64,000 nucleotides of DNA from Microbulbifer halophilus (lineage in GTDB: Bacteria > Pseudomonadota > Gammaproteobacteria > Pseudomonadales > Cellvibrionaceae): the NCBI RefSeq assembly GCF_026183675.1, contig NZ_JAPIVK010000005.1, positions 62,001 through 126,000 on the forward strand, given 5' to 3'. Below the pieces are notes generated by a model. It did no database searches, was not told the origin of the DNA, and was given only the letters and a program-made list of their open reading frames with translations. Positions 25,341 through 36,523 of the stretch are shown piece after piece. The position numbers and the translations under genes were made by a program. Within the stretch, counting starts at the first letter, position 1; the number at the start of each line of letters is the position of its first letter.

Positions 25341-25592
25341 ATCTGAAATCCACTGGAGAAGCTTTTCACAGCTTTTATGTCTCGTATTCCGGAAGGTCGG
25401 GTGGCCCCTCTGCCAGCCGATCACTGCACGGCGGGCGATTCTGGAGGAGGCGACGGGGGAGGGCAAGTGGCCTGGACGGCCGGACGCGGCAGTAGGGTTG
25501 TTCAAAGATGGTTTGTGCCAGGTGTGGGGATAAACGAAAAAGGCCCGTCAAATGCCGAGCCTCCTGTAACTTTCTGCTTGCGGCTGGATAGA

Positions 25593-25677
25593 TTGGGATG
25601 GGCCAGAGAAGCAAAAGCCCCGAAAACACTGGGCTTTCGAGGCTTCTGTGGTCCGTCTGAGATGGCGGGAGTCGAAA
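25593..25677. other. Left attachment region of the ssrA element (duplicate ssrA 3' end and terminator)
   Basis: The 18-bp core at 25660-25677 (GAGATGGCGGGAGTCGAA) repeats exactly at 36139-36156, inside the T-arm and acceptor stem of ssrA. The 65 bases before it duplicate the ssrA terminator region at 36057-36125 with only a few differences. This is the far end of the element inserted in ssrA. It lacks the CCA-end stretch present in the intact gene. Confidence 0.85.
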
Positions 25678-25730
25678 AGAATTTCTAAGTGATTGATTTA
25701 CATTAACTATTTTTCGATTCTTAATCGAAA

Positions 25731-25752
25731 CCCGTCACAAAACCCGTCCAAC
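25731..25752. other. Putative integrase arm sites
   Basis: ACCCGTCA (25731-25738) and ACCCGTCCAA (25743-25752) stand in direct repeat just inside the left att core. Near the integrase end the same motif appears as AACCCGTCCAA reversed at about 36032-36042 and as CCGTCCA at 36001. Placement on both sides of the element fits arm-type binding sites of a tyrosine recombinase. Confidence 0.5.
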
Positions 25753-26104
25753 TGATTAAGCTGCCTTGATAAAGCTGCGGGGAGTATATTTCTCCGTCAC
25801 GCGCCCGTGACGGCTGTGTAGACGACCCCGTGTCTACAAATGCGTCTGGTGACGGGGTGGTTGACGGCAGCGGCGAGATCGGCGGATACTGAAGCTGCCG
25901 TGGCAAAATCTGCGGCCGGGATTGGTCCCCCGAACTTCACAGGCGCACAACTCGCGCTCGCGAGTTTTTTTGTGCTCGCTCATCTATGGTGGGCGATTTG
26001 GGGCCGCTTCGGCGGGCCGTTCCTGTGACGGTAGGACCAACCTCGAATCGCCCGCCTCCATTCAGCGGTACCGGTGGGGGCCTCCATCCAATAAGGAGCC
26101 CAGC
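25753..26104. other. Non-coding left end of the element, with one hairpin terminator
   Basis: About 350 bp without a convincing gene. It contains TGTAGAC ... GTCTACA (25817-25838) and, at 25949-25972, AACTCGCG-CT-CGCGAGTT followed by seven T residues, which has the form of a plus-strand intrinsic terminator. What transcript it would end is not clear; a small RNA beginning near 25800 is possible. Confidence 0.45.
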
Positions 26105-26293
26105 ATGGACACCACAATCGAAAAGATCTCCAGAACCATCGAGGATTTGTACACATTGTGCGCCGCAGTCATTGATTCCGAGGAAATTACTCAGGCGCGG
26201 GGCCTGGCAATTATCGGCAAGAATTTCGCCGACAAGGGTCGCGACCTTGTTGATGAATTGGACATCAAAAACAGAGGGGAGTCTGCGCAATGA
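26105..26293 (+). CDS. Small protein of unknown function, first of a coupled pair
   Basis: 62 residues (MDTTIEKISRTIEDLYTLCAAVIDSEEITQ...), with AAGGAG at ideal distance before the ATG. Predicted all-helical, acidic, no signal peptide or membrane segment. Its stop overlaps the start of the next small gene (ATGA). The pair is transcribed opposite to the rest of the element and ends at a good terminator, so it is an independent accessory unit. Function unknown. Confidence 0.7.
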   Translation: MDTTIEKISRTIEDLYTLCAAVIDSEEITQARGLAIIGKNFADKGRDLVDELDIKNRGESAQ

Positions 26294-26550
26294 ATGCTAA
26301 AGTTCAGAAAACTGCGTGCACTCCCGAAGAAGTTTTCGACATCGCCAGCACGGGAGAAGGCTTTTACGTTGACGCGCTGAATTGCGGACTCGAAAGATTA
26401 CACGGCACGGTCACGATGCTTTCGGCGCATTTTGAAGCGGATTGCGATCGCCTGAATGAAGAGATTGTATCTAACGCGCTATGGGCAGTTGAGGGGCAAG
26501 TTAACGACCTCAAGAAACTTCTTAGTCTTGCTACCGCCGAAAAGAATTGA
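26290..26550 (+). CDS. Small protein of unknown function, second of a coupled pair
   Basis: 86 residues (MNAKVQKTACTPEEVFDIASTGEGFYVDALNCGLERLHG...), overlapping the previous gene by four bases. Looks mainly alpha-helical, with heptad-like hydrophobics in the second half (LNEEIVSNALWAVEGQVNDLKKLLSL). The segment 'FDIASTGEGFYVDALNCGLERL' faintly recalls DUF3077-type small proteins, but I do not assign it. A terminator follows at 26572. Confidence 0.7.
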   Translation: MNAKVQKTACTPEEVFDIASTGEGFYVDALNCGLERLHGTVTMLSAHFEADCDRLNEEIVSNALWAVEGQVNDLKKLLSLATAEKN

Positions 26551-26571
26551 CCTCAAGAACAGGTGCAGATT

Positions 26572-26595
26572 AGCCCGCTTAAAGCGGGCTTTTTT
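26572..26595 (+). terminator. Intrinsic terminator of the small-gene pair
   Basis: AGCCCGCTT, one-base gap, AAGCGGGCT then TTTTT, 22 bases after the stop of the second small gene. Confidence 0.85.
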
Positions 26596-26604
26596 ATCAG
26601 TTGT

Positions 26605-27276
26605 TCAGGGCCTCGCCTTCGGTGCCGAAGGCATAGGCGTCTCTGGGCATCGTGTAACCTCGAACTGCCACTGGGGGATAGCCCCGCTCGTAGAGGTCAG
26701 GTTTTCGTTTTCCATTACCATATAGCAAGTGCCACGGTAAGCATGAACGTTCTCTGCGCTGAACGCCTCTTGCATCACCGGCGAGGGTTGTTGGTCGAAA
26801 TCCCCCAGATAAAGGGATGCTCTTTGTAAAAATGTTAAATCATTTGTTTCCAGAGTGGCGGTGTAGATTTCTGCCAGCTCTTGAGGAAGACCGTGCGCTA
26901 CTACGTAGACGTCATTAATGTAAACTTCAGGGTCGTGTACGTATATCAGTTCATTGTTTCTCCAGATACGTTCTACCCGGGTAACAGGGCCTTCGCAAAT
27001 GCGTATGGCATAAGTCCGGTATATCTCCCGGTGCTGGATCTTGATGTCAGGCCCAAACAAACCTCCAGACTTTCTCTCCGTCCATTCAACAATTTTTGGC
27101 TCGGTGGTAGCGATGATATTGCCTTTCACTGGCCTGACCGTGCCGAAAATGATAGGCCTCGGGACACCCGCCTTGCTGGTTTGTATTTTTACATCTACAG
27201 GCTGCGCGTCTATCTTGATGCTGCCAAATATCAATGATCCCACGGCGAGTACACCTCCACCAGCAGATGGCGCCAT
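26605..27276 (-). CDS. Truncated phage tail-tip protein (gp15/gpJ-like N-terminus)
   Basis: 223 residues that match only the N-terminal part of tail-tip/host-specificity proteins: PRPIIFGTVRPVKGNIIATTEPKIVEW, then HREIYRTYAIRICEGPVTRVERIWRNNELIY. Full-length proteins of this kind usually exceed 600 residues, so at least two-thirds is missing. The reading ends with PSAPKARP just before the terminator of the small-gene pair. It overlaps the NlpC/P60 gene by 46 bases, the normal order in siphophage tails. It is likely non-functional as a receptor-binding tail tip. Confidence 0.75.
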   Translation of the reverse strand: MAPSAGGGVLAVGSLIFGSIKIDAQPVDVKIQTSKAGVPRPIIFGTVRPVKGNIIATTEPKIVEWTERKSGGLFGPDIKIQHREIYRTYAIRICEGPVTRVERIWRNNELIYVHDPEVYINDVYVVAHGLPQELAEIYTATLETNDLTFLQRASLYLGDFDQQPSPVMQEAFSAENVHAYRGTCYMVMENENLTSTSGAIPQWQFEVTRCPETPMPSAPKARP

Positions 27277-27665
27277 CGTTTGTCGAGAACATGCTCGACG
27301 ACATTATGTTGAGCATGTGAGTGGACCAAGGAAAACCCGCCGTACCTATAATCAGCCAAGAAGCCAACATGGCAGGGGCCTCGGTTCTTAGCCTTGAACA
27401 TAGCCACGTCGCCAGGTTGCCATTGCTCTTCCGGAATCGGGTTCCCGAAACATTCTTGCAGGTGCTCCCTCAACCCATCTTTCCAGGGCTCTCTGCCATA
27501 GTACTTTTTATCTCCAACTTGCAGGCCTGCGGCCGCGCAAGAGAGAACAACGAGTCCCCAGCAATCCACTGCCCAGGGTTGGCGTCCCCGGTGTCGAAAC
27601 TTCACGCCAACCATAGATCGGGCATGTGACAGAGCGGCCTGCCTTTGTTCTTTGGTATCAATCAT
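27231..27665 (-). CDS. Phage tail NlpC/P60 peptidase
   Basis: 144 residues from ATG 27665, with a GGAGG upstream inside the preceding gene, which it overlaps by eight bases. The catalytic Cys is in WAVDCWGLVVLS near residue 34, with His in CHVGFL and a later HSHAQHNVVEH. NlpC/P60 proteins of this size sit beside the tail tip in lambda-like siphophages (gpK domain) and cut peptidoglycan during DNA entry or act in tail assembly. The catalytic residues look intact. Confidence 0.85.
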   Translation of the reverse strand: MIDTKEQRQAALSHARSMVGVKFRHRGRQPWAVDCWGLVVLSCAAAGLQVGDKKYYGREPWKDGLREHLQECFGNPIPEEQWQPGDVAMFKAKNRGPCHVGFLADYRYGGFSLVHSHAQHNVVEHVLDKRWRHLLVEVYSPWDH

Positions 27666-28053
27666 CGAAAAATTCATCCTCCTCGTCGTCTTTCTTCTCG
27701 GCGCGGTTGCGCTCATCGGTGAGGCCTAGCTCAGCCATGTACCCACGCAATTGGCTGTGCTTCGCCGCTTGGAAGCTAGCCGGATTAACCATCATTTCCT
27801 TCCAGAGCTCACAGAACGCGATCGCTGCTGGCTCTCGGCTGGCGTCGAGCCAGTACGCGGGCTCGATCCAGCGCTTCCAGGCCTTCGCCCCCTCTCCCTT
27901 CAGGCTCGGAGGCTTCTTCAGCGCTCCGAACGCGGAGCGATCTCGATCTGTGCGGGCCCGCTTCGAGGTCGCATCCCCATGACGGCCGGGCCGATGGGTC
28001 CCAGACACCAGATGAAGGCGCGCTGGCTTGGGTCTTCGCCCCTTTTTGGACAT
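27658..28053 (-). CDS. Phage terminase small subunit, P27 family
   Basis: 131 residues. The N-terminal RRPKPARLHLVSGTHRPGRHG and the segment SLKGEGAKAWKRWIEPAYWLD are typical of P27-type small terminases, which bind the packaging site and recruit the large subunit. The C-terminus is very acidic (KKDDEEDEFFDD). Its place is odd: it lies between the tape measure and the tail peptidase, and no large terminase gene is present anywhere in the element. Confidence 0.85.
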   Translation of the reverse strand: MSKKGRRPKPARLHLVSGTHRPGRHGDATSKRARTDRDRSAFGALKKPPSLKGEGAKAWKRWIEPAYWLDASREPAAIAFCELWKEMMVNPASFQAAKHSQLRGYMAELGLTDERNRAEKKDDEEDEFFDD

Positions 28054-28177
28054 TTTTTAACCTTTTTGCCGAAATTGAAAATCCGAAATTTAATTTTGGC
28101 AGTGCGAAAATTTGATTGGGGGCGCGGTGTCCGCTCGGTGCGAATATTTTTCGTTTACCTCCCCCCCCTGGATTACG

Positions 28178-30442
28178 TCATCGCCTCGAGCCCAACCTCC
28201 GTTCGACCATCCGCTGTCTCTGCGCCGCCTCCGCAGCCAGTTGCTGGCGCGTCCTGGGTGTAGGCTGCTCCTTCATATTGAAGTTGTTGTTCACCGTCAT
28301 TCCGCCGGGGCCGTTGCGGCCACTCATCCCGCGCTGAACGTCGTCCAGCGTGCGGTCCAGCTTGGCGGAGGTCTCGGCAGTGGTGACGCGCTCGCCCTGC
28401 TGTAACAGCCAGGTGCCGTCCTCCGGGACGGCGTCGATGCCGTCGTGCGCCATGCCGGTCACGCCGGCGGCAGCCACTGCGCCAGCGGCGTAGACTGTGC
28501 CGGCGGCGGTGGCGCCGAGAGCGGGGCCTACGTAGGGGATGGAGGCCAGGGCCTCGTAGGCGCCCATGGCGGCGCTGTGCGTGCTGGTGAGGATGCTCTC
28601 AAGCGCGTTGCGTTTTTTCTCGTCCAGCAGGGTCTGGCCGAGCTGGATGGCGGCGCGGGTGTAGGCCGCCTCTTCCCCCTCCAGCCCCTCGTAGTATTTG
28701 CCGGCCACATCGAGGATCGCGCTGTAGCCATCCAGCATTTGCTGGGTGCGTATTTCCTCGTTAGCTTTGGTGATCTCGGTCAGGCGGTTTTCGTATTCCT
28801 CCTGGAGGGCGAGTTCCTCCTCGTCCCAGGTGGTTTTGAGGTCGGCGCGCTCCTCGCGAAACTTGCGCAGCATGTCCAGCTGTTCGCCGTACCAGTCCTG
28901 CAGCTCCGTGCGGGCGGTGTCGATGCCCTCCATGCTGGAGACGCCGCCCAGCTCCGGGGCCTCCTCGGTGGCGTCGTCGGCGATGCGGCCCAGCGTCTGG
29001 TTGCGCTGGGCGTCAGTGATGTCCTGGACGGCATCGAGGACGGCCAGCCGCTCGCGGACCTGGTCGGTGAGTCGTTCCTCGTCGGTGCGGAGGTCCTCAA
29101 CCAACTTGTTATATGCCTCTTGCGCATCGCGTTGACGCTGTAACGCCGCCTCCCGAGCCTCCAGCTTCTCGATTGTCGAGTCGTACAGATTGTTGAACCT
29201 TTCGAGAGGATCAACAAAGGCCGCAATATTATCTGCGGTTTCGCCGGTCTTTTCGGCAACCGCCGCGGCGCCCGTAATCAAAGAATTGTCGAGCTCCGGG
29301 ATTACTCCCAGCGGCGGATCCTGAGCTTGCGAACCACCCCCAAGGCCGAAAAATTCTTCGCGCTGCGCCTGCAGAGATTTCAGCTTTTCTTCCAGGACCT
29401 CAACAGCTGTCCCCTGATGCAAAAATTCGCCCGTTGCCAGGCGCACGCCCGTCAGTAGCTTGCCGTCTGCAATAACCCCACTTTCCAGCGTCGATTGCAG
29501 TGAGTTGATAGACCGCTCAAGCGCCAGAACTTCCGGCTCCCCATGCACCAGCCGGGCCACACTTTCGGCAACTCCCTGTGTAAATTCTGTGATCTCCACC
29601 GTTGCCTTGACGGCGGCGGATGCGACTGTAATCAAGGCTTCCGCTACGTCACTGATAGCATCGATTGTTTTTGGGTCGCTCAGAAGTTCCGTCATATTAT
29701 CGATGGCCGGAACCGCGTTGACCGTTATTTCGTTTTGCAGACCAGTGATCGCATTTTGTAAATCGTCGATGTTTTCCTTGGCGTCCAGCAGGTTCTCCAG
29801 CTCGATTTCGGACAGGACCGCGCCCGCTTCCTCCGCCTTGTCACCGAATCTTTCGAGTTCACGACCGTTGTCCCGAAGTAGCGGCAACAACAAGGTGGCA
29901 TCGCTGGCGATAGCCTCCATATAGAATGTCATTTCATTTTGCGACAAATTCGCCTTTTCAAGGCTGTCTACATAAAGCCCAAGCGCGTCCGCGCCAGAAA
30001 GGTTTCGGAATTCATCGGCCGTCACCCCCACCTGCGGGGCGATGTTTTCGAAGAAGTCCGCCATCGGGCCGGCGCCCGTCTGGAGGAAATCCCCCACTCT
30101 GTCGGTGGTGTCCTTGAGAATGTCGGCCAGCTTATCCTGCTGGATGCCGACGCGCTCGGCGGCGAAGGCGAAGCGCTGGAAATCCTCTACGCCGGTGTTG
30201 GCCACATTGGAAAAATTTTCTATTTCCTTCGCATTGTTAATTACGCGCGTGGTCATTACGGCCAGTGCACCAGCGGCGACAGAGGCTCCTGCAGCAAATG
30301 CTTTACCGGCAGCCCGAACGTTTCGTTCTACCTCCTTGCGCCATTTCTGAGTGCGCTTTTCTGCTTTCCCCATACCCTGCTCGAAGCCGCCTATTTTGGC
30401 GACGAGATCCAGGGTCAGTGTGCCGAGTGAGCGAGTTGCCAT
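28178..30442 (-). CDS. Phage tail tape measure protein
   Basis: 754 residues from ATG 30442, with GGGGGAG upstream. Features: N-terminal LGTLTLDLVAKIGGFEQGMGKAEKR, an Ala-rich segment (AGKAFAAGASVAAGALAVMT), a long coiled-coil-rich middle, a hydrophobic stretch late in the protein (SIPYVGPALGATAAGTVYAAGAVAAAGV) and AHDGIDAVPEDGTWLLQQGERV near the C-terminus, typical of siphophage tape measures. It sets tail length and helps form the DNA channel. The gene is intact. The neighbouring tail tube and chaperone genes expected upstream are missing. Confidence 0.85.
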   Translation of the reverse strand: MATRSLGTLTLDLVAKIGGFEQGMGKAEKRTQKWRKEVERNVRAAGKAFAAGASVAAGALAVMTTRVINNAKEIENFSNVANTGVEDFQRFAFAAERVGIQQDKLADILKDTTDRVGDFLQTGAGPMADFFENIAPQVGVTADEFRNLSGADALGLYVDSLEKANLSQNEMTFYMEAIASDATLLLPLLRDNGRELERFGDKAEEAGAVLSEIELENLLDAKENIDDLQNAITGLQNEITVNAVPAIDNMTELLSDPKTIDAISDVAEALITVASAAVKATVEITEFTQGVAESVARLVHGEPEVLALERSINSLQSTLESGVIADGKLLTGVRLATGEFLHQGTAVEVLEEKLKSLQAQREEFFGLGGGSQAQDPPLGVIPELDNSLITGAAAVAEKTGETADNIAAFVDPLERFNNLYDSTIEKLEAREAALQRQRDAQEAYNKLVEDLRTDEERLTDQVRERLAVLDAVQDITDAQRNQTLGRIADDATEEAPELGGVSSMEGIDTARTELQDWYGEQLDMLRKFREERADLKTTWDEEELALQEEYENRLTEITKANEEIRTQQMLDGYSAILDVAGKYYEGLEGEEAAYTRAAIQLGQTLLDEKKRNALESILTSTHSAAMGAYEALASIPYVGPALGATAAGTVYAAGAVAAAGVTGMAHDGIDAVPEDGTWLLQQGERVTTAETSAKLDRTLDDVQRGMSGRNGPGGMTVNNNFNMKEQPTPRTRQQLAAEAAQRQRMVERRLGSRR

Positions 30443-30453
30443 GGGCTCCCCCT

Positions 30454-30726
30454 TCAATGTGTTTGTGTTGTCCCCGCGAAGTCCGCACGAAGCGCTTCGA
30501 CGAGAGCGGCAACGAATTTTTCGCTACAGCTTCTCGGCACCGCGACGCGGGCGGTCTCCTCCAGATCGAGGAACGCCACAGCAGCCACGATCTCAATCAT
30601 GCCGTCCTTAACTGTTCCGCTAAAAATTACATCACCGCTGTCGACCCCCAGAGATTCAGTAAAAAAGGCCACCCTTTCGGAAATTTCAACGCGCAGTGCA
30701 CGGCTCTTGTCTGTATCAAGGCTCAT
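30454..30726 (-). CDS. Small phage protein of unknown function
   Basis: 90 residues (MSLDTDKSRALRVEISERVAFFTESLGVDSGDVIF...), with GAGGATG before the start. It lies between prohead protease and tape measure and ends just before the tape measure start. Mixed alpha/beta, no membrane segment. The place would suit a tail tube or completion protein, but it is too short and shows no family signature. Confidence 0.6.
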   Translation of the reverse strand: MSLDTDKSRALRVEISERVAFFTESLGVDSGDVIFSGTVKDGMIEIVAAVAFLDLEETARVAVPRSCSEKFVAALVEALRADFAGTTQTH

Positions 30727-30730
30727 CGAT

Positions 30731-31291
30731 TCATCCTCTCTTCAAGCGAACGGCGCCGCGTCCGACGGTGTTCAGTTTTACAGCCTCGCCACGGCTGTAT
30801 TGTTTTCCGATCTTGGCGCCAGGGTTTGCCGGGATGCTGACCACGGAAATCTCTATCAGCTCCCATTCCGTGAAGCGCCGGCCGGTTTTTATTGGCTTTG
30901 ACTTGGTTCCGATAAACCCGATGGAGAAGCTATCCACCAGACCGGCCTCAAGCATTTTCCACACCTCGTCCGCGCGCGGGATTCCCTCGGCAATCTCAAC
31001 GCGGACGCGGACCCCGGAATCGGTGGCCGTCGCCTCGCGCACCCATCCGACCGGTTCGTCATGCCGGTGCATCCACAACAATGGAACCGGCAGCGACCAG
31101 TGCCCGCCTTTGGGCTCGACGATGTCGCCCATTCTGTCCACCTGTTTGGTACTGGCTATCCCAGTAACCACCCTTCTGCCGCCGCTGACAAATTTCTGCA
31201 CGTGGTCCAAGGCCAGATCCATTCTCTTGTGGCGCAAAGCCATCTCGAGATCAGCGACGCGGCGAGCCAGTTGATTTAATGTAACTGTCAT
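30731..31291 (-). CDS. HK97-family prohead protease
   Basis: 186 residues. The catalytic His region is LPVPLLWMHRHDEPVGWV (about residues 67-84) and the Ser region is GLVDSFSIGFIG (about 117-128), the usual H...S pair of the S78 prohead proteases, with the ISVVSIPANPGA end segment. It cleaves the scaffold or delta domain of the capsid protein during head maturation. It stands directly downstream of the capsid gene, the reverse of the usual order (protease before capsid). A separate scaffold is not seen. Confidence 0.85.
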   Translation of the reverse strand: MTVTLNQLARRVADLEMALRHKRMDLALDHVQKFVSGGRRVVTGIASTKQVDRMGDIVEPKGGHWSLPVPLLWMHRHDEPVGWVREATATDSGVRVRVEIAEGIPRADEVWKMLEAGLVDSFSIGFIGTKSKPIKTGRRFTEWELIEISVVSIPANPGAKIGKQYSRGEAVKLNTVGRGAVRLKRG

Positions 31292-31301
31292 CGCTACCCC
31301 C

Positions 31302-32294
31302 TTAATATTCCGCGCCAGTAACGAGGCTCACGGATCCTGCCCGGCGTACGGACCAGTTCGCGTTGCCGACAACGCGAAAGGCGATTGTGTTGGTATCGAA
31401 CAGGGAGACCACGTTGGTGCCGGTTGGTGTAGCGCTGGACATATTGGGATCATCGTCCATCTGCAGTGTGGTGCTATTGGATGAGGTGATGACGCCCGCC
31501 TCCCAGGCCAATTGAATACCAGCAGCGTCGGCCAGAACGATCACACCGTCGGGAACATTGCGGGAAGTTATCAGGGGGATCCCGGCGACCTCACCCCCAC
31601 GAGCGCCGGCCCCCTCGTAACCAGCGCCGTGCAGCGCGACCGCAAGAGCCGGGGTCGTGATGAGGAACGCAGCCCCCAGGTCGCCGTCAAAGTCGCCCAC
31701 CAGGGCGGTGATGTCGGCCTGCGGGTCAGCGGTTGCGGCAACCGGGGTTACTCCGTTGGTGATACTCGGCGGGATGACATCGGCAACGCCGGCGTTGTTC
31801 GGGTCGATGAACGTCGAGTCCACAGCGTCGATGGCGGCTCGCAAAAGGTCGTCACGGATAGTGTTTTCGAAGTTGTCGGCACGCAGCGAGTCCTTGCTCG
31901 CTACGGTCAGCCCCCCATAGGTGCGGATCGGCAAGCCTCCGGCGTCGAAATCAAATCCCGAGACAGGGATCGCATTACCCTCTGCGAAAAAAGCAGCAGT
32001 GGTGCCGGCAGTGACCTCCACCAGCACGGTTTCGAAAGGCACACTGCGGATGCCGGGCATCCGGCCGATTATGGACCGCTCCCGCACAAGGTTGAAAAAA
32101 TCAACAGCCTGTAAGTCGATGTCACCCAGGTCGCCGAATGTAGCGGCAGGCACAGCCGCCTTTGAGATTTCGATCCCCCAGCGGGATCGACCATAATTAA
32201 CCGCTGTGGTGTAGCCACCCTCCGCCAGCGCACCGGCAATGGCGGATCGGACGAAATCTCGCCCGCCGGTATTGCCCAACCGTACTGAACCCAT
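31302..32294 (-). CDS. Phage major capsid protein (HK97 fold)
   Basis: 330 residues if started at ATG 32294, which has GAGG seven bases upstream; an in-frame ATG at 32330 has none. Capsid features: an N-terminal helix region, then VRERSIIGRMPGIRSVPFETVLVEVTAGTTAAFFAEGNAIPVSGFDF (P-domain and E-loop type strands), LRADNFENTIRDDLLRAAIDAVDSTFI (spine helix), and a C-terminal A-domain with NTIAFRVVGNANWSVRRAGSV. There is no long N-terminal delta domain, so the protease has an unclear substrate. Expected partners portal and head-tail connector are absent. Confidence 0.8.
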   Translation of the reverse strand: MGSVRLGNTGGRDFVRSAIAGALAEGGYTTAVNYGRSRWGIEISKAAVPAATFGDLGDIDLQAVDFFNLVRERSIIGRMPGIRSVPFETVLVEVTAGTTAAFFAEGNAIPVSGFDFDAGGLPIRTYGGLTVASKDSLRADNFENTIRDDLLRAAIDAVDSTFIDPNNAGVADVIPPSITNGVTPVAATADPQADITALVGDFDGDLGAAFLITTPALAVALHGAGYEGAGARGGEVAGIPLITSRNVPDGVIVLADAAGIQLAWEAGVITSSNSTTLQMDDDPNMSSATPTGTNVVSLFDTNTIAFRVVGNANWSVRRAGSVSLVTGAEY

Positions 32295-32369
32295 ATAGAC
32301 CTCGCTTTGCTCATTGAATCCAATGGTCATTGTCCACACGAAACGTGCCGCAACCGTGCCGAAGGGAAA

Positions 32370-32651
32370 TTAAACGTGCCGACCCAACGCCTCCCGTACC
32401 GCCTCCGGGTCGAGCAACCACCTGCCTTCTGGTTTGATTGCCCCACCGGTGTGCGCCAGGCGCCGGGCCATTTTTCTGGCGTGGTCGTCGGTGATCCCGA
32501 ATCGGTGGACAATCACGTGGGTCTCCAACCACTCCGGCTGGGTATCGGGATCTAGAGCAGGCTCCCGCTGTTCTTCCTGCACCAGGGCTCGCAGCCCGTC
32601 CAGCTCTGCCTGCACGTTATCCACTGCCTGGAGTATGCGTTCACGATCCAC
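32370..32651 (-). CDS. Small putative DNA-binding protein upstream of the capsid gene
   Basis: 93 residues from GTG 32651, chosen because GGGGAGG precedes it. N-terminal coiled coil (MDRERILQAVDNVQAELDGLRALV), then VIVHRFGITDDHARKMARRLAHTGGAIKPEGRWLLDPEAVREAL, which looks like a MerR/excisionase-type winged helix. It may be a small-terminase-like or regulatory protein. No family name can be given. Confidence 0.5.
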   Translation of the reverse strand: MDRERILQAVDNVQAELDGLRALVQEEQREPALDPDTQPEWLETHVIVHRFGITDDHARKMARRLAHTGGAIKPEGRWLLDPEAVREALGRHV

Positions 32652-32741
32652 GACGCCTCCCCGAATACTCGATTTCGGTAACCGGGCGCTGTTGGACTGA
32701 TAGGTCCGCGAAATGTCCGCTTCCGATGCGGACATTGAACC

Positions 32742-33001
32742 GATAAGTAACGGTGGAATTACGATGAAGTAACGGTCGGATCGTTACCGAGACGAAAAGG
32801 CTTGTTGCCGACCACGCGACACATAGCGGTAAATAATAAATCAGGGAGAACCCCTGGTAATCTATAGAGGAGTTCAGTTTCTGAAGCAGGTCACCCCCGC
32901 CCATCGGTTCATTTTCTGAAGCGATGGGCGGGTTTCCCGGTGCTTGTGGATCTCCCATCGCTTCACTTTTTAAACCGATACGGTTCACTTTATGAAGTAG
33001 G
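32742..33001. other. Dyad/iteron array in the element (candidate origin or control region)
   Basis: A 338-bp gap (32652-32989) without a gene holds four related 20-bp units of the form GTTCA-nTTT-nTGAAGC: 32872-32891, 32907-32926, 32961-32980 and 32983-33001, the last overlapping the end of the helix-turn-helix gene. The second is flanked by an 11-bp inverted repeat CCCGCCCATCG/CGATGGGCGGG. Further left are two direct AGTAACGGT copies (32746-32754, 32768-32776) with a GTAACG/CGTTAC dyad, and an AT-rich stretch near 32830. This is the form of a plasmid- or satellite-type origin or a multi-site operator. Confidence 0.6.
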
Positions 33002-33436
33002 TTTTTTGATGCGCTCCAAGGAGAAGCTGCGCATCGGTGCTCTGGTCGGAGCGATCTCCAGCTTCCCGCGGCACTCGTCGATAGATTGCCAGGTGAGCGC
33101 GTAGAGCGCGCAGCAGCCTCCAGGCTTGAGGAAGCGCCCCTCCCTGGTCCGGACGACAAGGGCACGGTCCTGAAGCTCCTGCAAAGCTTTTGCGAGCGTG
33201 GCCGAACTGCCCACGCCCCATTCCCGCGCCTGGTTGAGCGTTGCGGAGAGGTCTCCATTGTTGTTACCGCGGTACTGGCGCAAGAGGCCCAGCAGCACCT
33301 TGATGGCACCCCCAGACAGCGAACGGAAGTCATCGCTATCCATGACGGCGTGAGGAAGTGCTGCGAATGTACCCGCCGGCTTGCGGCCCTTGGCTCTTTG
33401 TCGACTGATACCCACACGGTCACCCCCTCGCGCCAT
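32990..33436 (-). CDS. Helix-turn-helix replication/regulation-type protein
   Basis: 148 residues; ATG 33436 lies inside the end of the upstream gene, and a GTG eight codons later (after AGGGGG) is an alternative. The segment FAALPHAVMDSDDFRSLSGGAIKVLLGLLRQYRGNNNGDLSATLNQAREWGVGSSATLAKALQELQDRALVVRTREG is a winged helix like that of RepA/plasmid or phage replication-type proteins found beside AlpA in integrated elements. The iteron-like array begins at its 3' end, which fits a protein that binds it. Function inferred from position. Confidence 0.65.
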   Translation of the reverse strand: MARGGDRVGISRQRAKGRKPAGTFAALPHAVMDSDDFRSLSGGAIKVLLGLLRQYRGNNNGDLSATLNQAREWGVGSSATLAKALQELQDRALVVRTREGRFLKPGGCCALYALTWQSIDECRGKLEIAPTRAPMRSFSLERIKKPTS

Positions 33437-33746
33437 TCAGCGCTTTGGCAAGCTTTGTGCGGTCCTCATCAGTAGGGCGGTAGACGCCGCGGCGGCTGGA
33501 GATCCCGTCGCTCGTGATGAATGGCACCCGTATACAAGGGATTCTCACCCCCAGGCGCCGGCGCAACTGTCGGACGTATTCCGGCCCATTGCTGCAGGGC
33601 GTAGCGCGGTCTACGGCTTCCCGCGAGAGGCCTCCAACAGATGCCGAGAAGGCGCGGGCCAGGCGTTCCAGGCGGGAGGGTAGTTTGATAGGATTGGCGC
33701 TGTTCAGGGCGCTCGGCTGGTTCTTTGCTGGTCGGGCGTTTTTCAT
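33420..33746 (-). CDS. Winged-helix-domain protein of integrative elements
   Basis: 108 residues. The region LSREAVDRATPCSNGPEYVRQLRRRLGVRIPCIRVPFITSDGISSRRGVYRPTDEDRTKL is a small winged helix often found in integrative elements of Pseudomonas and relatives, where it follows an AlpA-type gene. It overlaps both neighbours (ATGA with the AlpA gene, 17 bases with the next), so the three form one translational unit. Role unknown, probably regulation. Confidence 0.65.
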   Translation of the reverse strand: MKNARPAKNQPSALNSANPIKLPSRLERLARAFSASVGGLSREAVDRATPCSNGPEYVRQLRRRLGVRIPCIRVPFITSDGISSRRGVYRPTDEDRTKLAKALNGARG

Positions 33747-33979
33747 TTTGCGTCCCCCATGCTGTTAACTTCAGCAATGAGGGCCCGCTTTAACTCCAGT
33801 AGGTAGGCGCCGTCCCATACGGTAGTTTTAGGACCGAGTTTAGTGCCGCGCTTGGCCTTTCCGGTTTTTACCCAATGCCACCACGTCGAGAGTCCTATGC
33901 CAAAGAAGTTGGCGCAGGTACGGGCTCGGTAGCTGGCATCGGGATTGATCGCAGAGGGAAGGTTTAGATTGTGTGGCAT
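33743..33979 (-). CDS. AlpA-like regulator/excisionase
   Basis: 78 residues: SYRARTCANFFGIGLSTWWHWVKTGKAKRGTKLGPKTTVWDGAYLLEL is a MerR/AlpA-type helix-turn-helix with the W-xx-V-KxGK..P..K motif. AlpA proteins in prophages and satellites switch on excision and early genes. First gene of the early cluster on this strand; overlaps the next gene by ATGA. The gap before it (33980-34063) is short. Confidence 0.8.
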   Translation of the reverse strand: MPHNLNLPSAINPDASYRARTCANFFGIGLSTWWHWVKTGKAKRGTKLGPKTTVWDGAYLLELKRALIAEVNSMGDAK

Positions 33980-34063
33980 GTATCAGCTCCTATGTGGGCT
34001 TGTTGAGGCTGATACGCACTTTATTTATATTTTCTCCCTGCCCGGGTCATCGGGATGGGTTGA

Positions 34064-34705
34064 TTATTTTTTGTTCTGCTGTTGCCTGTGGGCGCTTATT
34101 TGGTTTTTGAAGGTCTTGTAGGATATTCCGCTAGGGTTGCCATCCCAGATAATTCTGCTTTTATCTGTTGTTTTCCCGGTGGTTTCTGACGGGTTTAGTC
34201 TGTTCTCGTCAAGCCACGCGTAAAGCAAAGGCCATAATTCTGCTGTAGGTAGTGATCCCCAGTCGTCTTGCCGTTGTGCAAGTTCCTTTATTTTTTTATT
34301 CAATTCGCCACGATTCCCCCAGCGAGCTTGTGCTCCCTTATCTCCTTTGTCACTTTGCAAAGCTGAGTAGCTGGCTTCTCTGTGTAATCGGATATTCGTA
34401 CGCACAGTCTCGCAATTCGTGTCCAATAACATTATTGCCACAGTTAACCCATCGGCGTCACCGTTTGCTAGGCAATGTTTGGCATGACGCAACTGAGTTC
34501 GGAACAGCATTTCGAATTCTTCGCGGAGATTAGGTGGGAGTCGCGTAATGTCGTTAGGAATTTGAACTTCGGCTTTGCGCAACCATGCTTCTGGGTTTTG
34601 TGGCCATTTTCGCTCTCTCCAGTAGCGTTTTGCTCGGAGCTGAATTTCTTCTATATATTCATCCTCAGCCTTGAACTCTGCCATTAAAGTTTCAATTTCT
34701 TTCAT
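34064..34705 (-). CDS. AT-rich cargo gene of unknown function
   Basis: 213 residues from ATG 34705 (a longer start at 34741 overlaps the integrase stop). Base composition is clearly poorer in GC than all neighbours, suggesting separate origin. The protein is cytoplasmic, helical and charged: MKEIETLMAEFKAEDEYIEEI, RAKRYWRERKWPQNPEAWLRKA, then GDADGLTVAIMLLDTNCETVRTN, and a C-terminal WPLLYAWLDENRLNPSE and SYKTFKNQISAHR. No family recognised. It stands between integrase and AlpA, a common place for accessory or defence cargo. Confidence 0.65.
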   Translation of the reverse strand: MKEIETLMAEFKAEDEYIEEIQLRAKRYWRERKWPQNPEAWLRKAEVQIPNDITRLPPNLREEFEMLFRTQLRHAKHCLANGDADGLTVAIMLLDTNCETVRTNIRLHREASYSALQSDKGDKGAQARWGNRGELNKKIKELAQRQDDWGSLPTAELWPLLYAWLDENRLNPSETTGKTTDKSRIIWDGNPSGISYKTFKNQISAHRQQQNKK

Positions 34706-34715
34706 GTTTCTTGCT

Positions 34716-35945
34716 TTATTTCGTACCAAAATGAACGGCAACCACGTTGCCCGATCTCGCGTGCTCGCGTAGGTCGTCTAGGTAATCAGCCCACTTCTGC
34801 ATCATGGCCGCCCGCTGAGGCAGGTGCTTGGTGCGGTTGTAGGCGCGGCCCAGGGCATCTTTCACCCCGTGGGCTAACTGGTGCTCGATGTAATCCACCC
34901 GGCAGCCCAGCACTTCATCCAGCAGCGTGCGGGCCATTGCCCGGAAACCGTGGGCGGTCATGGTGTCGTTGTCGTATCCCAGGGAGCGCAGGGCGGTCCT
35001 GACGCCGTTGTCGGACAGGGGGCGGCTCTGGCCCCGGGCGGAAGGGAAAACGTACTTGCCGCGGCCGGTGAGGGGCTCGAGTTCCCGCAGCAGGGCCAGG
35101 GCCTGCTCTGCCAGCGGAATGATGTGTGGCTCGCCCATCTTCATCTTCTCGGCCGGCAGCTCTATCTGGCTGGCCTCCCAGTTGATTTCCGACCACTCCA
35201 ACTTGCGCAGCTCCCCAGGGCGGCAGAAGAGCAGCGGGGACAGCTTGAGGGCGGTTCTCACGGTCGGGGTGCCCTGGTACTCGTCGATTGCCACCATGAG
35301 CTTGCCTACCTCCGCCGGATCCGTGATCGCGGCCAGATGCCGCTTTCTCGTGGGCTTCATCGCGCCGGTGAGGTCGGTGGTGGGGTCGCGGTCGGCCTTG
35401 CCGGTGGCCACGGCGAAGCGGAAGACCTGGCCGGCTACCCGCTTTACCCGGTGGGCGGTTTCGAGGGCGCCGCGGCTCTCGATCCGGCGCAGGCAGCGCA
35501 GCACCTCCGGCGCGGTAATTTCGGCGATAGGGCGCTTGCCCAGGTAGGGCAGCAGGTCGCTATCCAGAGCGCGCTGGGCGCGGTCCCTGGAGGACTTGGA
35601 CAGATGGGCCATCTTGGCTGCGAACCACTCCTGGCTGACCGCGGAGAAGCTATTGCGATTGGCCTCGAGGGCGGATTCCTTGCGGGCGCGCTTCACGTCC
35701 CGGGGATCTATGCCGGCGGCCACATGCTGGCGTGCCTCGTCCCGAAGCGCTCGAGCGCGTTTCAGGGGTACATCAGGGTAGAGCCCCAGGGCCATCTCCG
35801 GCCGTTTGCCGTGGAGCCTGAAGCGGAACACCCAGCGCTTGGCGCCGCTGGGGGTCACTTCAATGGCCAGGCCCTTCTCGTCGACCTCGAGGTACTTCTT
35901 CCCGCGGGGCTTGAGTGCGCGGATCTTGGTATCTGACAGCGGCAT
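34716..35945 (-). CDS. Tyrosine integrase (P4/IntS-like) targeting ssrA
   Basis: 409 residues from ATG 35945, preceded by AGGAAGG. N-terminal DUF4102 arm-binding domain (LSDTKIRALKPRGKKYLEVDEKGLAIEVTPSGAKRWVFRFRLHGKRPEMALGLYPDV), SAM-like core-binding domain, then the catalytic domain: Arg in LLFCRPGELRKLEWSEI, HGFRAMARTLL (His and second Arg), HQLAHGV and Tyr in LGRAYNRTKHLPQR. It sits 190 bp from ssrA with the att core at the tmRNA 3' end, so it is almost surely the enzyme that inserted the element. Intact. Confidence 0.95.
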   Translation of the reverse strand: MPLSDTKIRALKPRGKKYLEVDEKGLAIEVTPSGAKRWVFRFRLHGKRPEMALGLYPDVPLKRARALRDEARQHVAAGIDPRDVKRARKESALEANRNSFSAVSQEWFAAKMAHLSKSSRDRAQRALDSDLLPYLGKRPIAEITAPEVLRCLRRIESRGALETAHRVKRVAGQVFRFAVATGKADRDPTTDLTGAMKPTRKRHLAAITDPAEVGKLMVAIDEYQGTPTVRTALKLSPLLFCRPGELRKLEWSEINWEASQIELPAEKMKMGEPHIIPLAEQALALLRELEPLTGRGKYVFPSARGQSRPLSDNGVRTALRSLGYDNDTMTAHGFRAMARTLLDEVLGCRVDYIEHQLAHGVKDALGRAYNRTKHLPQRAAMMQKWADYLDDLREHARSGNVVAVHFGTK

Positions 35946-36056
35946 GGCTGAGCCTTCCTCGCTGGATTTGGACGGGGTGGACGGTGCCGGCAGGCCCAAC
36001 CCGTCCACAAACCCGGCCAGTTGCGGTTAGATTTGGACGGGTTGAGTTAGATTAAC

Positions 36057-36156
36057 TGGGATGGGTCAGATAAGCAAAAGCCCCGAAAACACTGGGCTTT
36101 CGAGGCTTCTGTGGTCCGTCTGAGACGGTGAGTTGGTGGAGATGGCGGGAGTCGAA
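36057..36156. other. Right attachment region of the element
   Basis: Contains the 18-bp core at 36139-36156 within ssrA and, outside the gene, the terminator copy shared with 25593-25660. Between them lie 17 bases (about 36122-36138, including the CCA end) that are missing from the left copy. Confidence 0.85.
36073..36109 (-). terminator. Intrinsic terminator of ssrA
   Basis: On the minus strand AGCCTCGAAA, loop, TTTCGGGGCT is followed by TTTTGC, 25 bases after the tmRNA end. A second copy is at 25611-25647. Confidence 0.8.
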
Positions 36157-36523
36157 CCCGCGTCCGTCAGCACTCTGCCAGAGGCTCTACATGCTTAGTT
36201 CCGTCAATTGATTTAGCCGCTTACAGCCCGACGGGCAGGACGTAATTGGCGAGCCTGTTTAGGTTTTAGCCGATCCCCGACAGGCGCGGTTCACAGCGAT
36301 CCAGTTCTGTTTGACAGTCTGCAGCGCGGTACTGGCACCTTACTGAAGACCGCTAAGGGACGAACCCTTAGTTAGTGCTTCACAGGCTGCTTACGCAGCG
36401 AGTTGGGCACCGTAGTTGTCGTCGTTGGCAACTAATAGATTGCAGCTTTGGATTTACGTGATTGGCTGCCATCACGGCATGCACCCATGGTTTCGTCACC
36501 GGCGTCGAATCCAAGTCATCCCC
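36134..36523 (-). ncRNA. ssrA: Transfer-messenger RNA
   Basis: About 390 nt. The 5' end GGGGATGACTTGGATTCGACG pairs its first seven bases with CATCTCC before the encoded CCA at the 3' end (one G-U pair), and the T-arm GGGTTCGACTCCC is intact. The mRNA-like part encodes the tag ANDDNYGAQLAA followed by TAA (complement of about 36392-36430), preceded by the usual resume codon. It rescues stalled ribosomes together with SmpB, encoded 1.6 kb away. The 3' 18 bases are the attachment core of the integrated element, yet the gene remains complete. Confidence 0.95.

What the first reader, a model, noticed from the sequence alone, without database searches (positions are those of the whole stretch)
25660..36156. 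A 10.5-kb capsid-bearing element in ssrA without large terminase or portal
Between exact 18-bp repeats in ssrA lie integrase, AlpA, winged-helix genes, an iteron-like array, capsid, prohead protease, tape measure, P27 small terminase and a tail peptidase. Large terminase, portal, connectors, tail tube and lysis genes are absent, and the small terminase sits between tail genes. Either a prophage with several tidy deletions or a helper-dependent element that keeps head and tail parts. Intact frames in most genes argue against simple decay.
Basis: partly seen in the sequence, partly recalled or inferred. Interest (0 to 1): 0.72.

Follow-up and report, generated by a model that had tools for sequence, protein, structure and literature searches.

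The report
Phage satellite with capsid and tape-measure
A 10.5-kb DNA element parked in a bacterial tmRNA gene carries a virus shell gene and a tail-ruler gene but no recognisable DNA-packaging motor or portal; relatives with the same odd gene set can keep one shell gene while exchanging the tail-ruler, which suggests a parasite of phages that builds hybrid particles.

Summary
A 10,480-bp element lies between exact 18-bp repeats at the 3' end of ssrA. It carries integrase, AlpA-like gene, p148 (replication-initiator-like) with a four-site array, capsid, S78 protease, tape measure (TMP), weak P27 TerS, NlpC/P60 and a hub N-domain; no portal, large terminase (TerL) or connector was found. I add an isrK/C4 RNA pair and a carried ssrA terminator copy.

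Best read as a helper-dependent phage satellite. The int-p148 backbone also carries complete cf-PICIs; among 50,697 phage records p148 matched only one, without structural genes. Capsid + TMP without portal or TerL recurs in eight of 298 Pseudomonadaceae genomes and one viral contig (homologous capsids), in G642, and in three further lineages. In four of those nine, capsids are 94-98% identical but TMPs 26-53%: TMP was exchanged; other pairs kept theirs.

The window's exact cargo was seen once, and its hub gene is truncated. Satellite TMPs and chimeric tails are published (PLE, Nature 2026, which also maps tmp genes in cf-PICIs). The set without portal/motor and the TMP exchange were not met in my searches. 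Induction, particles and transfer are untested.

The parts
25659..25676 (.). attR: 18-bp core, copy of the ssrA 3' end
   Evidence: exact repeat
36139..36156 (.). attL: 18-bp core inside ssrA
   Evidence: exact repeat
36134..36523 (-). ssrA (tmRNA), integration target, kept whole
   Evidence: ARAGORN; Rfam RF00023
36050..36128 (-). copy of the sequence downstream of ssrA (terminator-like hairpin by eye) carried by the element; the other copy is at 25587-25665 outside attR
   Evidence: 79-nt repeat, 92% identity; function inferred
34716..36008 (-). tyrosine integrase (430 aa)
   Evidence: Pfam; 78-88% near-full-length relatives beside ssrA in 12 of 20 selected congeners
34064..34741 (-). 225-aa protein of unknown function
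   Evidence: no family; 44% over 103 aa to a gene in satellite L243
33743..33979 (-). AlpA-like regulator (78 aa)
   Evidence: 51-73% matches in 12 of 20 selected ssrA islands; no family match of its own
33420..33746 (-). winged-helix-like protein (108 aa); the name is an inference
   Evidence: 35-52% relatives in related islands; no family match
32990..33436 (-). p148, replication-initiator-like protein
   Evidence: phrog_18020 E 2.6e-4; backbone marker, 34 of 390 genomes
32873..32997 (-). four-site array at and after the p148 stop (CTTCATAAAGTGAA, GTTTAAAAAGTGAA, CTTCAGAAAATGAA, CTTCAGAAACTGAA), spacings 22/54/35; putative origin or operator
   Evidence: function inferred
32370..32735 (-). 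121-aa protein upstream of the capsid gene, HTH-like by eye
   Evidence: ORF; no credible family match
31302..32339 (-). major capsid protein, HK97 type (345 aa)
   Evidence: phrog_617 E 2.5e-28; tree
30731..31291 (-). prohead protease, S78 (186 aa)
   Evidence: PF04586 E 3.5e-14
30454..30726 (-). 90-aa protein before TMP; tail assembly chaperone by position only
   Evidence: ORF; AF2 model pLDDT 75, no fold match at E 0.001
28178..30457 (-). tape measure protein, D3-like (759 aa)
   Evidence: phrog_2854 E 1.5e-144; phage hits
27658..28053 (-). small terminase, P27-like (131 aa), weak
   Evidence: phrog_83 E 0.013
27231..27716 (-). NlpC/P60 tail-tip peptidase
   Evidence: PF00877 E 4.4e-10; phages
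26605..27276 (-). N-terminal piece (223 aa) of a megatron-type baseplate hub
   Evidence: NF048004 E 1.2e-22; phrog_4271
26290..26550 (+). 86-aa protein behind C4, antirepressor candidate by position only
   Evidence: ORF
26106..26293 (+). 62-aa protein behind C4
   Evidence: inner start of the 25922-26293 ORF; start chosen by eye
25982..26062 (+). C4 antisense RNA
   Evidence: RF01695 59 bits (cut-off 45)
25897..25970 (+). isrK RNA
   Evidence: RF01394 65.9 bits (cut-off 50)

Best explanation
A helper-dependent phage satellite of about 10.5 kb. Shown from sequence: an integrase element in ssrA with the gene kept whole, a p148 replication-type gene with a phased array, an isrK/C4 RNA pair, and open capsid, protease, TMP, TerS and NlpC genes without portal or motor. 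Inferred: an infecting or induced siphophage supplies large terminase, portal, connectors, tail tube, the rest of the tail tip and lysis. The satellite supplies its own shell protein and protease, either as a whole shell or mixed into the helper shell like SaPIbov5 Ccm. It also supplies its own TMP and entry parts, so that the helper tail is finished around a satellite TMP, as PLEs do. TerS would steer packaging to satellite DNA. TMP is the part matched to the helper and can be exchanged when the helper changes.
For: Same deficit elsewhere: eight of 298 genomes of the Pseudomonas family (E below 1e-190) plus one IMG/VR contig carry a homologous capsid with TMP and no portal or TerL match. Other lineages: Litchfieldella (capsid call weak, phrog_6538 E 7e-4), Billgrantia, viral contig L147 with protease-capsid-TerS-TMP. 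The p148 backbone carries complete cf-PICIs and is absent from known full phages at tblastn E 1e-3 (1 of 50,697 records, without structural genes). Purifying selection between the G204 and L091 cassettes: dS about 1.3 for capsid and TMP, pN/pS 0.27 and 0.32, HNH 0.17. TMP exchange: six capsid comparisons 94-98%, the same six TMP comparisons 26-53%, with a DNA breakpoint about 90 bp into TMP and identity resuming at HNH. The window capsid joins TMP-bearing G642 with support 100/99, apart from the cf-PICI capsids (both branches long). C4 RNA in the window and 13 of 24 related loci scanned. p148 arrays in 31 of 42 loci against 10 of 840 shuffles and 54 of 805 other segments, phased at 10.55 bp. 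PLE precedent for satellite TMPs in chimeric tails: PMC12987554, passages read.
Against: The window's exact cargo was found once; besides itself no genome in 58 relatives and only four distant capsid hits in 390 order genomes. The hub gene is truncated, which fits decay at the attR end. TerS is weak. No helper seen in the genome: no second D3-like TMP and no PF04860 portal (other portal families not searched). TMP was not always exchanged: G581 and G485 share TMP at 98%, G204 and G468 at 75%. G1143 has capsid plus a portal-like gene and no TMP hit, so the deficit is not uniform. No expression, induction or particle data.
Confidence: 0.72

Rival explanations
1. A decayed prophage: a siphophage that lost portal, TerL, connectors and lysis by several deletions and keeps a few open frames by chance.
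For: Truncated hub gene; the exact set is unique so far; TerS sits between tail genes; no helper seen in the genome.
Against: Capsid precedes protease as two genes, whereas the two related prophages examined have one 650-660 aa frame with protease first, so plain deletion does not give this order. The left arm is that of satellites and islands. The same deficit recurs under purifying selection in relatives.
Confidence: 0.17
2. A capsid-forming PICI that lost its portal-HNH-TerL block and picked up tail genes; formerly autonomous for heads, now dead or in transition.
For: Same backbone and capsid-then-protease order as the complete cf-PICI L048; the capsids of both match phrog_617.
Against: The window capsid is far from the cf-PICI capsids (L048: 26% over 78 aa, E 8e-4; best of six E 6e-11) and nearer to G642 (37%, E 2e-51) and to prophage capsids; in the tree the six cf-PICI capsids form their own clade at 100/100. 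The deep forks of that tree are only 80/82. Odds lowered from 0.12 to 0.08 after these two calls.
Confidence: 0.08
3. A defence island: capsid and TMP act as decoys that poison assembly of an infecting phage rather than building satellite particles.
For: Islands at the same ssrA site with the same integrase carry other cargo; PLE11 Rta shows that tail assembly can be a defence target (PMC12987554, passages).
Against: Protease, TerS, replication-type gene with array and C4 RNA are those of a mobile element that expects to be packaged.
Confidence: 0.1

Closest known systems
[quoted passage not shown]
   Same: integrase, p148-like gene, HK97-type capsid, protease, TerS; C4 RNA in L048 and L146
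   Different: no portal, TerL, HNH or connectors in the window; adds TMP, NlpC and a hub piece; capsid from another group. Some cf-PICIs are reported to carry putative tmp genes (PMC12987554, legend of Extended Data Fig. 10)
PLE satellites of Vibrio cholerae
   Same: own TMP with a hub protein, proposed chimeric tail
   Different: sequence kinship not tested; PLE11 particles contain the ICP1 capsid protein (passage), here a capsid gene is carried
SaPIbov5-type PICI with Ccm
   Same: a capsid homologue of similar length (Ccm 355 aa) encoded by the satellite (PMC8569155 passages)
   Different: staphylococcal island; Ccm alone makes no shell and was the only satellite protein found in the capsids (same passages); no TMP mentioned there
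Pseudomonas phages PAJU2 and D3
   Same: TMP of the D3 group; capsid 33% to PAJU2 over 77%
   Different: full-size phage genomes; helper candidates only by similarity

Membership tests
cf-PICI | capsid and head maturation protease | tested here: met
   definition from PMC10690885 introduction (passage)
cf-PICI | portal and head-tail connectors | tested here: not met
   no match among the proteins scanned and no room
cf-PICI | large and small terminase and HNH | tested here: not met
   TerL and HNH not found; TerS present but weak
PICI (generic) | integrase, AlpA-type regulator and replication module in a small island (list recalled) | tested here: met
   AlpA only by similarity to island genes
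PICI (generic) | induction and packaging by a helper phage | not testable with these tools
   needs induction experiments
PLE | own TMP incorporated in chimeric tails | tested here: inconclusive
   TMP gene present; incorporation untested
P4-like | alpha primase, sid, psu, delta set (recalled) | tested here: not met
   no primase or such match among the window proteins scanned; sid, psu and delta not sought by their own models
decayed siphophage prophage | left arm shared with a full siphophage | tested here: not met
   p148 matched 1 of 50,697 phage records, a 16-kb one with no structural gene annotated; the integrase was not searched there

The most novel reading that the evidence does not exclude
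A widespread satellite kind that owns shell and tape measure but neither portal nor motor, and builds doubly chimeric particles. TMP is an exchangeable, helper-matching module moved between a conserved capsid block and an HNH gene. Sister islands on the same backbone carry podovirus ejection proteins (P22 gp7-like) instead, so the common trait is that the satellite brings the proteins that travel with its DNA into the next cell.
Probability: 0.45. Interest if true: 0.78.

Novelty: new variant of a known kind. Interest (0 to 1): 0.63.

Why it matters
It fills the gap between satellites that only resize helper heads and cf-PICIs that make whole heads. It also points to the tape measure as a part that satellites replace, which makes helper choice by satellites open to test: natural satellites with nearly identical capsids but different TMPs can be compared for which phages mobilise them.

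Tried and rejected
Tried without gain: capsid query in viral contigs gave no relative; two-row p148 alignment in viral contigs none; protease query only four distant loci at 31%; window TerS and p90 found nothing in phage records and TerS nothing in solved structures; the p90 fold had no match with E of 0.001 or less, so the chaperone label rests on position. p90 showed no significant similarity to the small genes before TMP in L061, L045 and L007. The att repeats of the tRNA-borne elements were not resolved. The class-wide capsid search found two distant hits besides the window. L061, best TMP match at 60%, is a tail operon fragment with tube and chaperone genes, not a satellite. Of five further capsid regions one is a cf-PICI with p148 (L265), one an ordinary phage (L266), L262 has capsid plus portal-like gene, L263 and L264 capsid-like genes without TMP, portal or TerL match.

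Considered and dropped: shorter satellite tails (TMPs of 659-956 aa; phage TMP lengths were not measured); gene transfer agent (integrase, no motor).

Rows dropped: in the spacing test related loci were merged by hand into 26 groups, loci with fewer than three sites were left out except L152 and L211 type groups with two spacings, and the fourth L007 site was left out; L055 and L057, probably spurious, were kept. The 42 loci are partly related. In the capsid tree L265 was left out because its match held a stop, and L163 and L147 are long branches.
Full report
What is there. Between two exact 18-bp repeats (25659-25676 and 36139-36156) lies a 10,480-bp element whose right end is the 3' part of ssrA. 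A 79-nt stretch just downstream of ssrA inside the element (36050-36128) is 92% identical to one at the other end, 25587-25665, just outside the repeat. It holds a hairpin with a T-rich flank by eye. I read it as a replacement ssrA terminator brought by the element, with the host copy displaced. Genes on the minus strand, in order: integrase, a 225-aa protein, AlpA-like, 108-aa, p148, 121-aa, capsid, protease, 90-aa, TMP, TerS, NlpC/P60 and a 223-aa hub N-domain. On the plus strand next to attR are isrK and C4 RNAs followed by two small genes and a terminator-like hairpin. No minus-strand ORF apart from integrase, capsid and TMP exceeds 260 aa, so portal and TerL have no room.

The backbone is a satellite backbone. 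A profile of p148 matched 34 of 390 genomes of the order, the window's included. I fetched regions from 20 of those 34 genomes, 17 named loci from the genome collection (partly the same genomes) and 13 viral contigs. Integrase and often AlpA-like genes stand before p148. The cargo differs. Complete cf-PICI sets (capsid, protease, portal, HNH, TerS, TerL, adaptor) are in L048 and in L142, L146, L148 and L149; L151 lacks only an adaptor match and L153 a TerS match, so six of 13 viral contigs. Of the 20 fetched regions, three showed phage structural genes in my searches: L041, L045, L048. Others hold large non-phage ORFs, for instance what look like type I restriction genes in L050 and L052, by eye only. 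Ejection proteins occur in Alloalcanivorax gelatiniphagus (L041/L154; phrog_598, E 8.8e-33) and Vibrio proteolyticus (P22_gp7, E 1.1e-11). In the phage collection p148 matched 1 of 50,697 records at E 1e-3: PP003913, 16,187 bp, 73% identity, annotated with integrase, 'replication protein O', primase and Rhs genes and no structural gene.

ssrA is a hotspot in this genus. All 48 genomes searched, the window's own included, gave an ssrA match. Of 20 ssrA regions that I chose from the 47 others, 12 carry a near-full-length integrase of 78-88% identity next to ssrA together with an AlpA-like gene; four of the 20 also carry p148; none gave a capsid, TMP, portal or TerL match to my query set. The PepSY gene flanking the window's left end lies 12.7 kb from ssrA in congener G016 at 89% identity, so the site is syntenic; between them G016 shows only integrase fragments of the query set.

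The deficit recurs. The capsid alignment of two Pseudomonas-type elements matched 12 of 298 genomes of the family of G204, which is Pseudomonas nicosulfuronedens. Eight have E below 1e-190 (G204, G581, G468, G546, G573, G485, G450, G478). With IMG/VR contig L091 these make nine elements with a homologous capsid and a TMP gene, and an HNH gene in eight of nine; in G478 the contig ends 1.3 kb after TMP. TerL and portal queries found nothing in them, while the same queries found portal in G487 and portal and TerL in G597, ordinary prophages with a fused protease-capsid frame. Six of the seven regions fetched lie beside a tRNA-Leu or tRNA-Phe gene. G642 is a tenth, more distant case with TMP and HNH whose capsid is nearest to the window's (37%; 39%); G467 was not resolved. 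Outside that family, Litchfieldella qijiaojingensis has capsid-95-TMP-79 (capsid call weak, phrog_6538 E 7e-4), Billgrantia zhangzhouensis a phrog_247 capsid and a TMP, and viral contig L147 protease-capsid-TerS-TMP. Halomonas elongata 153B has a TMP and a DUF5681 protein but no capsid was recognised. Against uniformity: G1143 has capsid plus a portal-like gene (41% over 391 aa) and no TMP hit, and G1160 a capsid-like gene without TMP hit.

Genes are kept and TMP moves. Between the G204 and L091 cassettes dS is 1.34 for capsid and 1.26 for TMP with pN/pS 0.27 and 0.32; HNH 0.17; the weakest is p158 at 0.56. Among L091, G581, G468 and G546 the six capsid comparisons give 94-98% identity while the six TMP comparisons give 26-53% (identity of the shorter sequence). 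Not all pairs differ: G581 and G485 have TMP 98% with capsid 90%, G204 and G468 TMP 75% with capsid 76%. At DNA level G581 and G468 match at 87% up to about 90 bp into TMP, not through TMP, and again at 81% from the HNH gene. The closest phage TMPs differ too: PAJU2 48% over 71% for G581, phi1 and D3 55% over 82-83% for G468, FBPa47 58% over 54% for G546. The window fits this: its capsid is nearest to G642 but its TMP is nearer to G204 (38% global) than to G642 (25%).

Capsid tree. In a tree of 26 capsids the window joins G642 at 100/99, the nine Pseudomonas-type capsids form a clade at 100/100, and six cf-PICI capsids another at 100/100. The deep forks have only 80/82 support and the tool warns that the window and G642 are both long branches. 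Direct comparison of window and L048 capsids gives 26% over 78 aa, E 8e-4.

Control elements. Within 230 bp after the p148 stop, 31 of 42 loci have three or more copies of a 14-mer at up to three mismatches, against 10 of 840 shuffles and 54 of 805 other segments of the same loci. The 66 spacings of 26 hand-merged groups cluster at multiples of 10.55 bp (R 0.786; best of 2000 random sets 0.367); related loci are not independent, so this is not a strict probability. The motif differs between groups while the spacings stay on the helical repeat, which suggests that p148 and its sites evolve together. C4 RNA is found in the window and in 13 of 24 loci scanned: L007, L238-L244, L048, L146, L167, L157, L203; not in L091 (no integrase on the contig), L147, L160, L163, L245, L154, L041, L204, L206, L208, L214. 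IsrK was studied in the Gifsy-1 prophage (PMC4825925, search listing and start of abstract only); C4 as a phage immunity RNA is recalled.

How it probably works. Shown: the parts above. Inferred: on helper infection or induction the C4/AlpA switch opens, the integrase excises the element, p148 starts replication at the array, and the capsid-TMP genes are expressed. The helper provides motor, portal, connectors, tube and lysis. The shell may be wholly the satellite's (the window brings a protease) or mixed with helper capsid as for Ccm of SaPIbov5 (PMC8569155, passages). TMP, NlpC and the hub piece replace the helper's entry parts, as PLE11 does with TMP and hub (PMC12987554, passages). The 80alpha neck structure resolves TMP and DNA in the tail of SaPI1 particles (PMC11661146, abstract), so a satellite may gain from owning that part.

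What is known. cf-PICIs are described by a full set of head and packaging genes (PMC10690885 introduction, passage), which the window fails on portal, connectors, TerL and HNH. TMP in satellites was reported in March 2026 for PLEs, with putative tmp genes in some cf-PICIs (passages); I could not see those maps, so some of the elements here may be among them. Searches whose listings showed me no account of capsid+TMP satellites lacking portal and motor, or of TMP exchange; none for ejection proteins with phage satellite; none for C4 antisense RNA with satellite. Other papers seen in passages: PMC13230959, PMC10803314, PMC4936722, PMC12846349. The library lacks most subscription journals, including the cf-PICI paper itself.

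Verdict. A real, probably functional kind of satellite; the window is a divergent and possibly end-damaged member. New variant of a known kind.

Noticed in passing
L154 11295-15934; L157 10585-15344: Islands on the same p148 backbone carry P22 gp7-like ejection proteins and two further large genes (possible gp20/gp16 counterparts by position and size, recalled) without portal or TerL match in Alloalcanivorax gelatiniphagus and Vibrio proteolyticus.
   Followed up: partly
L143 5908-10190: p148-bearing viral contig with a 577-aa phrog_3003 protein and an 855-aa phrog_684 virion structural protein, perhaps another ejection-type satellite.
   Followed up: no
window 25897-26062: isrK and C4 antisense RNAs at the attR end, shared with cf-PICIs and many capsid-TMP elements.
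   Followed up: partly
window 32873-32997 and 31 of 42 p148 loci: Helically phased site array right after the p148 gene; the motif varies between groups, the spacings stay on the helical repeat.
   Followed up: yes
L262 8994-11722: Island in the Litchfieldella family with primase, capsid and a portal-like gene but no TerL or TMP match: another partial head set.
   Followed up: no
window 36134-36523 and L202-L221: ssrA is an island hotspot in this genus; 12 of 20 selected regions share the integrase type with different cargo.
   Followed up: partly
L147 6456-6537: Proteo-phage-1 RNA (RF03044) behind the capsid gene of a capsid-TerS-TMP satellite.
   Followed up: no
L267 1-16187 (PP003913): A deposited 16-kb 'phage' record has the p148 backbone and no structural genes annotated; it looks like an island of this family rather than a phage.
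   Followed up: partly
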